From an uncultured Bermanella sp. (GTDB lineage: Bacteria > Pseudomonadota > Gammaproteobacteria > Pseudomonadales > Oceanobacteraceae), in contig CAJXRF010000019.1 in the NCBI GenBank assembly GCA_913058575.1, positions 1-64,000 of the forward strand: a DNA stretch of 64,000 nucleotides, given 5' to 3'. The notes under the pieces are model-generated. The model did no database searches and was not told the DNA's origin. It saw only the letters and a program-made list of their open reading frames with translations. Both the position numbers and the translations under genes were made by a program. Shown here piece after piece: positions 35,254 to 36,693 of this stretch (within the stretch, counting starts at the first letter, position 1; each line of letters starts with the position of its first letter).

Positions 35254-36012
35254 ATGATTAGCACCTCGTTAGAGAATCGAATTTTAAGCATTATTTTTGA
35301 CCGCAGTGATAAGAAGAATGCCATCACCAATGAGATGTATCTAGCAGCAGAAAAAGCAATTTTAGACGCTGGAAAAAATAGCGAAGTGCGCGTGGTGCTG
35401 TTCAAGGGCGAAGGCGGTAATTTCACAAGCGGCAATGATTTAGTAGATTTCCTTAAAAACCCTCCAGCAGGTGATGAGCCTCCGGTTTTAAAATTCTTAT
35501 TGGCATTGGCCCGCTGCCCTAAACCTGTAGTGGCTGGTGTAACCGGTTTAGCCGTAGGCATTGGCACCACTATGTTAGCCCATTGCGATTATGTGGTGGC
35601 CGCAAGCGATGCTCGCTTTAAATTGCCTTTTGTGGATTTAGGGGTGTGGCCTGAAGGGGGCTCTAGTTTGTTGTTTCCCAACTTAATGGGACACAGCCAA
35701 GCGGCGGAGCTTTTAATGCTGGCAGATGTATTTGGCAGTGAAAAAGCCGATAAAGTAGGTTTGTTGAATGCAGTGGTGGCAAGCGAAGAAGTATTGCCAG
35801 CCGCTCTTAAAGTGGCCACTAAGCTGGCTAATAAAGCGCCTAACGCTTTAGCAAAAACCAAAGCCTTAATTAAGCAAACCTACCTTGCTGAATTGGAAAC
35901 TCGAATGACCCAAGAGATTCATGGCTTTGCAGAATTGCTAAATGGTCCTGAAGCTAAAGAAGCGTTAGGGGCGTTTATGGAAAAACGTGCGCCGGATTTT
36001 TCTAAATTCTAA
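35254..36012 (+). CDS. Enoyl-CoA hydratase/isomerase family protein
   Basis: A 252-residue crotonase-fold enzyme. The oxyanion-hole segments are EGGNFTSGNDLVDF (about residue 53) and GVTGLAVGIGTTMLAHCDYVV (about 95-115). The acid residue in VDLGVWPEGGSS sits at the position of the isomerase-type glutamate, while the first hydratase glutamate is not evident. An isomerase-like activity on unsaturated acyl-CoAs is thus more likely than hydration, but the substrate is unknown. It is monocistronic, with AAGGGTAAG before the ATG. Confidence 0.88.
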   Translation: MISTSLENRILSIIFDRSDKKNAITNEMYLAAEKAILDAGKNSEVRVVLFKGEGGNFTSGNDLVDFLKNPPAGDEPPVLKFLLALARCPKPVVAGVTGLAVGIGTTMLAHCDYVVAASDARFKLPFVDLGVWPEGGSSLLFPNLMGHSQAAELLMLADVFGSEKADKVGLLNAVVASEEVLPAALKVATKLANKAPNALAKTKALIKQTYLAELETRMTQEIHGFAELLNGPEAKEALGAFMEKRAPDFSKF

Positions 36013-36067
36013 TGGTTTTTTAGGCGACCGCTTATGGTCGTCTAAGAAGGTTGGGTTAGCTGCATTG

Positions 36068-36345
36068 AGTTCTGCACAAATTCTGTGGATAACCTACGGG
36101 AAAACTAAAGGACAGATGTCCCTTAGTCCCAGCTGCTGCCCTATGCCGTCAAATTGGTTAAAATCACGGCATTTTAAAATCATAAAAAAGATTGATTTTT
36201 AAATTTTTATTTTATTTTTTTGTAAAATAAATTCAGAAGGAAAAAGTTCTGCACAAATTCTGTGGATAACTTCCTGCATAACTTAGGGACATTTACGCTT
36301 AGGCCACGGCTTTAGTATCTCTCTTTTAAATTGGTTAAAAACACG
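36068..36345. repeat. Imperfect 177-bp-period duplication with two DnaA boxes
   Basis: This lies in the 336-bp gene-free stretch 36013-36348. A 26-bp block ending CTGTGGATAAC occurs identically at 36068-36093 and 36245-36270. A second block, AAATTGGTTAAAA followed by CACG, occurs at 36151 and 36328, the same 177-bp offset, while the sequence between them is about half identical. Each copy contains TGTGGATAA (36084-36092, 36261-36269), whose complement TTATCCACA is a perfect DnaA box. An AT-rich stretch (about 36165-36240) lies between the copies. The second copy abuts the lrgA start. Confidence 0.85.
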
Positions 36346-36348
36346 TCT

Positions 36349-36693
36349 ATGTTAAACGGTTTTATTATCTTGCTTATTTTTTTCCTAATAGGGGAGTTCA
36401 TTGCCAACTTATTTGCTTGGCCTATTCCTGGCTCAGTCATGGGGATGCTGGTGTTGTTTATTTTTTTAATTGCTCGCTCGGGGATTCCAAAATCCATTAA
36501 GCACTCCAGCGAAACACTATTGCCCTACCTGCCTTTGTTTATTGTGCCGGCTTCTGTGGGAATCGTGGGGCATTTATACCTGCTACAGCAAGATGGGTTA
36601 ATTATTGTATTGGCTATGATCGCAAGCTTGGTGGTGGGCATACCTCTTTGCGGCTGGTTAATGCAGAAAATATTAGCGTGGCAGGCAAAATAA
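36349..36693 (+). CDS. LrgA/CidA-family holin-like membrane protein
   Basis: A 114-residue membrane protein with four predicted helices. The family motif PIPGSVMGMLVLFI lies near residue 24 and LPYLPLFIVPASVGI near 65 (PF03788). LrgA/CidA proteins act with LrgB/CidB in control of murein hydrolase export, lysis or metabolite transport; the exact activity is debated. ATG at 36349 is taken as the start, since an upstream TTG at 36331 lies in the duplicated spacer; no strong ribosome site is visible for either. The lrgB partner follows after 54 bp. Confidence 0.9.
   Translation: MLNGFIILLIFFLIGEFIANLFAWPIPGSVMGMLVLFIFLIARSGIPKSIKHSSETLLPYLPLFIVPASVGIVGHLYLLQQDGLIIVLAMIASLVVGIPLCGWLMQKILAWQAK

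What the first reader, a model, noticed from the sequence alone, without database searches (positions are those of the whole stretch)
36068..36345. Tandem duplication with two perfect DnaA boxes before lrgA
Two copies of a segment offset by exactly 177 bp each keep an identical 26-bp core with TTATCCACA on the complementary strand, while the rest has diverged to about half identity. Retention of the core suggests selection. An AT-rich tract lies between. It might be a DnaA-titration site, a DnaA-regulated promoter of lrgAB, or a replication-related locus.
Basis: partly seen in the sequence, partly recalled or inferred. Interest (0 to 1): 0.58.

Follow-up and report, generated by a model that had tools for sequence, protein, structure and literature searches.

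The report
Paired DnaA-recharging sites before lrgA
Next to an unrelated gene lie two copies of a short DNA element that looks like the E. coli sites which recharge the replication-starting protein DnaA, and the same element turns up, often in several copies, in most of the related bacteria that were searched.

Summary
In detail: a 26-bp core is identical at 36068-36093 and 36245-36270, offset 177 bp. Each copy belongs to a ~100-bp module: DnaA box I, 5 bp, inverted perfect box II, 3 bp, weak box III, then a RATTGG motif whose ATTGG starts 60 bp beyond box II. Between the copies, boxes I-II are 93% and the distal motif 94% identical; the rest is 31-68%. The nine searched genomes of the genus carry 1-3 modules beside lrgA. 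Of 22 lrgA loci in seven other genera of the family none has one; those genomes have modules elsewhere. It is not oriC. A model trained without E. coli ranks E. coli DARS1 first and the DARS2 core second in 262 kb that includes oriC, datA, polA and nrdA; RATTGG sits at the same distance in DARS1. So this is most likely a tandem DARS1-type DnaA-reactivating sequence, not an lrgAB promoter element. Modules match in 335 of 370 class genomes, many with Fis-like and IHF-like sites at fixed positions that the lrgA copies lack. Function is inferred, not shown; box III is weak here.

The parts
36069..36164 (+). DARS1-type module, copy 1 (model R2 positions 2-97)
   Evidence: 59.4 bits, E 1.7e-16 over 707,504 bp. 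The copy belongs to the set used to train R2, so the score itself is by construction.
36070..36078 (+). DnaA box I of copy 1 (TTCTGCACA, 2 mismatches to TTATCCACA)
36084..36092 (-). DnaA box II of copy 1 (perfect TTATCCACA), head-to-head with box I, 5 bp apart
36096..36104 (-). DnaA box III position of copy 1, degenerate (ACGGGAAAA, 4 mismatches to TGTGGATAA), 3 bp from box II
   Evidence: weak
36151..36163 (+). distal motif of copy 1 (AAATTGGTTAAAA), RATTGG at +68 from box II start
   Evidence: 94% identical to copy 2 over 36151-36167; same offset as in E. coli DARS1
36180..36240 (.). AT-rich linker (87% AT), with one reverse IHF-like match (1 mismatch) at +101 of copy 1
   Evidence: partly shared in the genus
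36246..36341 (+). DARS1-type module, copy 2 (model R2 positions 2-97)
   Evidence: 66.6 bits, E 9.9e-19; in the training set
36247..36255 (+). DnaA box I of copy 2 (TTCTGCACA)
36261..36269 (-). DnaA box II of copy 2 (perfect TTATCCACA)
36273..36281 (-). DnaA box III position of copy 2, degenerate (CCTGCATAA, 3 mismatches to TGTGGATAA)
   Evidence: weak
36328..36340 (+). distal motif of copy 2 (AAATTGGTTAAAA), ending about 8 bp before the lrgA ATG
36349..36693 (+). lrgA (neighbour, not thought to be part of the element)
   Evidence: PF03788, 78.1 bits
35254..36012 (+). enoyl-CoA hydratase/isomerase gene (upstream neighbour)
   Evidence: PF00378, 164.1 bits

Best explanation
The two copies are a tandem pair of DARS1-type DnaA-reactivating sequences. 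Shown by sequence: in each copy a strong DnaA box (II) stands head-to-head with box I at the DARS spacing, with a weak box III in the DARS position and a distal RATTGG motif at the same place as in E. coli DARS1. Inferred: ADP-DnaA binds box I and box II head-to-head, this loosens ADP, and the freed DnaA takes up ATP and can start replication again; having two modules would raise the local dose. The lrgA copies lack the Fis-like and IHF-like sites that many other modules carry, so they are expected to work without those proteins, as DARS1 does.
For: Model R2, built from 59 modules without any E. coli sequence, ranks DARS1 first (33.9 bits, E 5.6e-9, positions 1-91, no gap) and the DARS2 core second (20.5 bits, E 8.7e-5, positions 3-54) in 262,508 bp of E. 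coli DNA that also holds oriC, datA, and the polA, nrdA, purH and nrdD DnaA sites; the next scores are 16.0 (second DnaA cluster of DARS2), polA 15.9, nrdD 14.7, oriC 14.5, purH 13.7, nrdA 13.6 and datA 11.2. ATTGG follows box II by 60 bp in DARS1, and by 60 bp in 96 and 59 bp in 15 of 114 modules (these were picked with a model that contains the motif). An independent pattern free of boxes I and III (TGTGGATAA, 45-75 bp, ATTGGTTA) gave 24 matches in 370 class genomes: 11 at gap 60 (two of them the window copies), 5 at gap 59, 8 over the other 29 gaps; the backward control gave 9. The two copies keep exactly these blocks. Modules lie beside lrgA in 9 of 9 searched genomes of the genus. Published DARS definition: boxes I-III with the same spacing in both DARS, box I opposite to II and III, and a ~50-bp stimulatory flank in DARS1 (PMC5742627, passages).
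Against: Box III is poor in both window copies (3-4 mismatches). In G004 the lrgA locus lies at 0.09 of the half-chromosome from oriC, against 0.66 for DARS1 and 0.41 for DARS2, and nearer to the 0.20 of datA. No biochemistry or binding data were found for this organism, whose name is not known to me. A lone head-to-head box pair could also serve titration or transcription control.
Confidence: 0.66

Rival explanations
1. A DnaA-titration or DnaA-inactivating site (datA-like): the boxes near oriC soak up DnaA or promote ATP hydrolysis after initiation.
For: Position near oriC (0.09 of the half-chromosome in G004; datA is 0.20). Several strong boxes at one locus. E. coli titration by boxes near oriC is reported (PMC12371093, passages).
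Against: datA scores only 11.2 bits, on one box region. Minimal datA holds an IHF site (PMC5742627, passages); the window copies have no forward IHF consensus and only one reverse match with 1 mismatch, in copy 1. Titration alone does not explain the fixed box I-II spacing or the distal motif.
Confidence: 0.15
2. A DnaA-controlled promoter of lrgAB, coupling this membrane system to replication.
For: In the nine searched genomes of the genus the array lies next to lrgA and the last distal motif ends about 8 bp before the ATG in the window.
Against: 0 of 22 lrgA loci in 21 genomes of seven other genera of the family have a module (R2, E up to 10, default filters) or a perfect box within 3.3 kb; in those genera modules lie beside other genes, such as between a pseudouridine-synthase gene and a dsbC-like gene. 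Caveat: those lrgA proteins are only 30-48% identical to the window's, so some may be paralogues.
Confidence: 0.12
3. A replication origin or a relic of one.
For: Paired DnaA boxes and an AT-rich tract.
Against: GC-skew minimum of G004 at C1:62,001 (over the 400 kb joined) and the rpmH-dnaA gap at about C1:64,200-64,640, about 159 kb from the lrgA modules if the contig is circular; in G005 dnaA and the modules are 130 kb apart on one contig. The window's own skew is positive in 30 of 32 bins, with no switch at the locus. The same module occurs at several loci per genome.
Confidence: 0.02
4. An ordinary tandem duplication with chance-kept DnaA boxes.
For: Only two copies here, 51% identical overall.
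Against: The kept blocks coincide with the module found in 335 of 370 class genomes; a reversed-model control gives 0 hits of 15 bits or more in 1.37 Mb, against 298 (that DNA is enriched for matching loci).
Confidence: 0.02

Closest known systems
Escherichia coli DARS1 (bioD-uvrB gap, NC_000913.3 about 813,105-813,200)
   Same: box I (+), 5 bp, box II (-), 3 bp, box III (-); intergenic; ATTGG 60 bp after box II; no IHF consensus within 1 mismatch from +20 to +240; reported not to need IHF, and active without added factors in vitro (PMC4245941 and PMC5742627, passages)
   Different: single module in E. coli, two or three in tandem in eight of the nine searched genomes of this genus (one found in G006); box III better in DARS1; DARS1 has 2 extra bases inside the distal motif; different neighbours and a different distance from oriC
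Escherichia coli DARS2 (between rppH and mutH)
   Same: same core arrangement (20.5 bits); a second weaker core 316 bp on, comparable with the 298-340-bp tandem pairs at the pseudouridine-synthase/dsbC-like locus of other genera
   Different: DARS2 has IHF-like words at +79 and +95 and an exact Fis consensus at +131; the lrgA copies lack these (apart from one reverse IHF-like word in copy 1), and many other modules have a Fis-like site at +72 and an IHF-like site at +106, i.e. the opposite order
Escherichia coli datA
   Same: DnaA-box locus near oriC
   Different: no match to the module beyond one box region, 11.2 bits

Membership tests
DARS (DnaA-reactivating sequence) | DnaA boxes I and II head-to-head at the DARS spacing (5 bp) | tested here: met
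   both window copies and DARS1
DARS (DnaA-reactivating sequence) | DnaA box III, same direction as box II, 3 bp away | tested here: inconclusive
   right place, but 4 and 3 mismatches in the window copies; in the 13 genus modules the columns of GnATAA are invariant or nearly so
DARS (DnaA-reactivating sequence) | flanking stimulatory region beyond box III (DARS1 type) | tested here: met
   distal RATTGG at +68 as in DARS1. That this motif is the functional part of the DARS1 flank was not stated in the passages I saw.
DARS (DnaA-reactivating sequence) | intergenic, non-coding | tested here: met
   between ech (ends 36012) and lrgA ATG 36349
DARS (DnaA-reactivating sequence) | promotes ADP dissociation from ADP-DnaA | not testable with these tools
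   needs purified DnaA
DARS (DnaA-reactivating sequence) | DnaA bound in vivo | not testable with these tools
   needs ChIP
DARS2 subtype | IHF and Fis binding sites that activate it | tested here: not met
   within 1 mismatch no Fis consensus at +72 or +131 and no forward IHF consensus in the two window copies; one reverse IHF-like word at +101 of copy 1
datA | its DnaA-box cluster around an IHF site | tested here: not met
   (11.2 bits)
oriC | GC-skew switch, next to dnaA | tested here: not met
   in G004; in the window

The most novel reading that the evidence does not exclude
DnaA reactivation is a class-wide mechanism run by a compact ~150-bp element (DnaA boxes I-II-III, a Fis-like palindrome at +72, an IHF-like site at +106) that is present in several copies per chromosome and at some loci in tandem arrays; E. 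coli DARS1 is a stripped descendant that keeps only boxes and RATTGG. The lrgA array would be a DARS1-like, Fis/IHF-independent dose of it close to oriC.
Probability: 0.4. Interest if true: 0.75.

Novelty: new variant of a known kind. Interest (0 to 1): 0.6.

Why it matters
The DARS papers I saw treat E. coli and its near relatives. A review states that DARS1/DARS2-like sequences occur in many proteobacteria (PMC10380432, passage; its reference 91 is the 2009 DARS paper, not held here), so their wide existence is not new. What I did not find in the passages read is the fixed distal motif, the Fis-then-IHF order, the several copies per genome and the tandem arrays. If they hold, one model locates candidate DARS loci in about nine of ten sampled genomes of the class, and it becomes testable whether recharging of DnaA is a general part of the cell cycle and what the DARS1 flank does.

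Tried and rejected
Helical phasing of the tandem modules: spacings of 135-340 bp show no 10.5-bp periodicity (R=0.09, 16 distinct spacings). oriC and datA readings: rejected as above. lrgAB promoter: demoted. An exact match to the 24-mer in Lautropia dentalis looked like chance at first; it lies in an array of weaker modules upstream of priA.

Counting caveats. In '86 loci, 32 with tandem modules' was incompletely deduplicated: three Lautropia entries are one place, and other overlapping entries may remain. These loci were also chosen as best matches, so 32 of 86 is not a rate. The place lists are capped, so statements about full-length matches rest on the places listed. In one search I split the tally by hand: 108 of 114 genomes of the class and 111 of 185 outside it; 60 of the 80 misses were not printed, and I inferred from the sort order that they lie outside the class. 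Many matches outside the class cover only model positions 1-44, i.e. the boxes. In one search (35 of the 36 loci L137-L172, and 77 family/order modules) the left half of the Fis-like site lies inside model R2, so only its right half and the IHF-like site are independent of how the loci were chosen. Before I dropped matches under 25 bits, those that did not span model positions 20 to 85, those with fewer than 7 of 9 letters of box II, and those without enough flank. The first position count (31 of 32 loci within 0.70) used 12 genomes; with the 7 others it is 41 of 43, with approximate lengths for those 7. The exceptions are G656 (0.87) and G298 (0.90). Outside the family only matches listed in capped tables were used. 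E-values are rough (short calibration). No reversed-model control was run class-wide; it was run only on the held DNA. In checking I corrected an earlier belief that the AT-rich linker is private to the window: one search shows AT-rich linkers in G001 and G003 too.

Full report
What is there. The window holds two copies of a segment 177 bp apart between an enoyl-CoA hydratase gene (35254-36012) and lrgA (ATG at 36349). The 26-bp core is identical. Block by block the identity is: boxes I-II 93%, box III with the following GGGACA stretch 68%, middle 33%, distal motif 94%, linker 31%, and 51% over all 177 bp. So two separated blocks are kept, not one. The 24-mer core occurs nowhere else in the genome within 3 mismatches.

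Relatives in the genus. A search of 35 genomes (own one included) with the 24-mer, up to 3 mismatches, gave matches in 12: the own genome, four of eight others of the genus, and seven more distant ones. In the four of the genus the match lies in the same gap between ech and lrgA, with two or three modules each. Thirteen modules aligned over 102 columns without gaps. A sequence model (R1) of these found modules in 44 of 44 genomes of the family, the window's own included. The nine genomes of the genus (G000-G008) have them beside lrgA; in G002 the contig ends before ech. Eight have two or three modules there; in G006 (72% complete) one was found.

Not tied to lrgA. Other genera of the family carry modules elsewhere. 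A tandem pair 298-340 bp apart lies between a pseudouridine-synthase gene (PF00849) and a dsbC-like gene in several genera; L111 shows only the synthase side within its locus. LrgA-family genes are present in 21 of 21 genomes of seven other genera. Their 22 matches above the family cut-off were scanned and none had a module or a perfect DnaA box. Seven further matches are below the cut-off; the two I tested are LrgB, and these seven were not scanned. In the window's own genome further modules lie on contig C134 beside an alpha/beta-hydrolase gene, on C71 beside a gene without a Pfam match, and on C52 between MATE and aminotransferase genes and beside a lipase-like gene; one on C38 was not fetched.

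Not the origin. In G004 (main contig 3.506 Mb) the cumulative skew is lowest at C1:62,001 and dnaA starts at 64,671; the gap before dnaA, behind a gene that reads like rpmH, is rich in DnaA-box-like words by eye. The lrgA modules are at 3,411,610-3,411,855, about 159 kb away if the contig is circular. In G005 the distance is 130 kb on one contig.

The match to DARS. E. coli DARS1 has box I TTATCCACT, 5 bp, TGTGGATAA, 3 bp, TGTGTATTA, and RATTGG at +68 from the start of box II, the same offset as in both window copies. With model R2, trained on 59 modules without E. coli (all but two from the family), DARS1 is the best and the DARS2 core the second-best match in 262,508 bp of E. coli DNA chosen to hold other known DnaA sites. 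The published definition is three DnaA boxes with equal spacing in DARS1 and DARS2, box I opposite to II and III, plus a ~50-bp DARS1 flank that raises activity (PMC5742627, passages); another paper says that 42 bp flanking the last box is needed for full activity in vitro (PMC4585315, passages). Reported mechanism: ADP-DnaA on boxes I and II meets head-to-head, loses ADP, and the freed protein binds ATP (PMC8682772, passages).

Spread. R2 matched 335 of 370 genomes of the class at E up to 0.01 (own genome included), with 1-11 matches per matching genome; the places listed are mostly full length. In the phylum sample it matched 219 of 299. A pattern that ignores boxes I and III shows the fixed distance of the distal motif: 16 of 24 matches fall in two of 31 allowed gaps, or 14 of 22 without the window's own two.

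Two flavours. In 35 class loci an exact Fis consensus sits at +72 in 14, and an IHF consensus with at most 1 mismatch gives 21 matches at +106 or +107; shuffles expect 0.03-0.04 per position. Both occur together in 14 of 35. In the 77 family/order modules the exact Fis consensus sits at +72 in 16, and Fis plus IHF occur together in 11. The window copies have neither at these places, apart from one reverse IHF-like word with 1 mismatch at +101 in copy 1; other modules of the same genome do have the exact Fis word at +72 (L174, L175, L176), and L174 also an IHF-like word at +107. This parallels E. coli, where DARS2 needs IHF and Fis and DARS1 does not need them for its activity in vitro (PMC4245941 and PMC5742627, passages). 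In E. coli DARS2 the order is core, IHF, Fis (IHF-like at +79 and +95, Fis at +131); in the class module it is core, Fis-like, IHF-like. That Fis and IHF bind there is inferred from consensus words only; fis and ihf genes were not searched for.

Position. In 19 genomes 41 of 43 module loci lie within 0.70 of the half-chromosome from dnaA; the exceptions are G656 (0.87) and G298 (0.90) (lengths approximate for 7 genomes, matches partly from capped lists). The lrgA array (0.09 in G004) is closer to oriC than either E. coli DARS (0.66 and 0.41), which counts against a simple equation with DARS1.

What is shown and what is not. Shown: the anatomy, the conservation, the match to DARS1, the independence from lrgA across the family sample, and that this is not oriC. 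Inferred: DnaA binding, ADP release, the role of the distal motif, and any effect on the cell cycle. The organism's name is not known to me.

Literature. The listings of searches, and the passages read, showed no report of tandem DARS arrays or of the distal motif; only listings, abstract openings and passages of the named papers were seen. The 2009 paper that defined DARS and a 2019 mechanism paper are not held, so I cannot say what their alignments show.

Noticed in passing
window 36020-36045: An inverted repeat (TTAGGCGACC / GGTCGTCTAA, 6-nt loop) just after the ech stop codon, without a T run; it could shield the array from ech transcription. Read by eye.
   Followed up: no
window 36328-36349: The distal motif of copy 2 sits where a ribosome-binding site of lrgA would be expected; no clear Shine-Dalgarno sequence is seen by eye.
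   Followed up: no
L013 and L014 (genomes G029, G033): DnaA-box pairs lie near dUTPase_2 genes (PF08761) in two families of the order; possibly DnaA control of nucleotide supply.
   Followed up: partly
L003 2290-4360 and G057:C6:402293-408188 (Lautropia dentalis): Eight minus-strand module matches at E up to 0.05 over about 6 kb upstream of and into priA, one of them with the exact 24-mer of the window.
   Followed up: partly
L097 1636 and 1951 (E. coli DARS2): DARS2 holds a second, weaker core 316 bp from the first; with the 298-340-bp tandem pairs of other genera this hints that DARS2 may descend from a two-module locus.
   Followed up: partly
G106: A 1.9-Mb genome with one DnaA-family match only, so no Hda-like second match, yet with three module matches.
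   Followed up: no
L142, L149: Two class modules lie near a polA-like gene; E. coli DnaA also binds upstream of polA (PMC11317965, passages).
   Followed up: no
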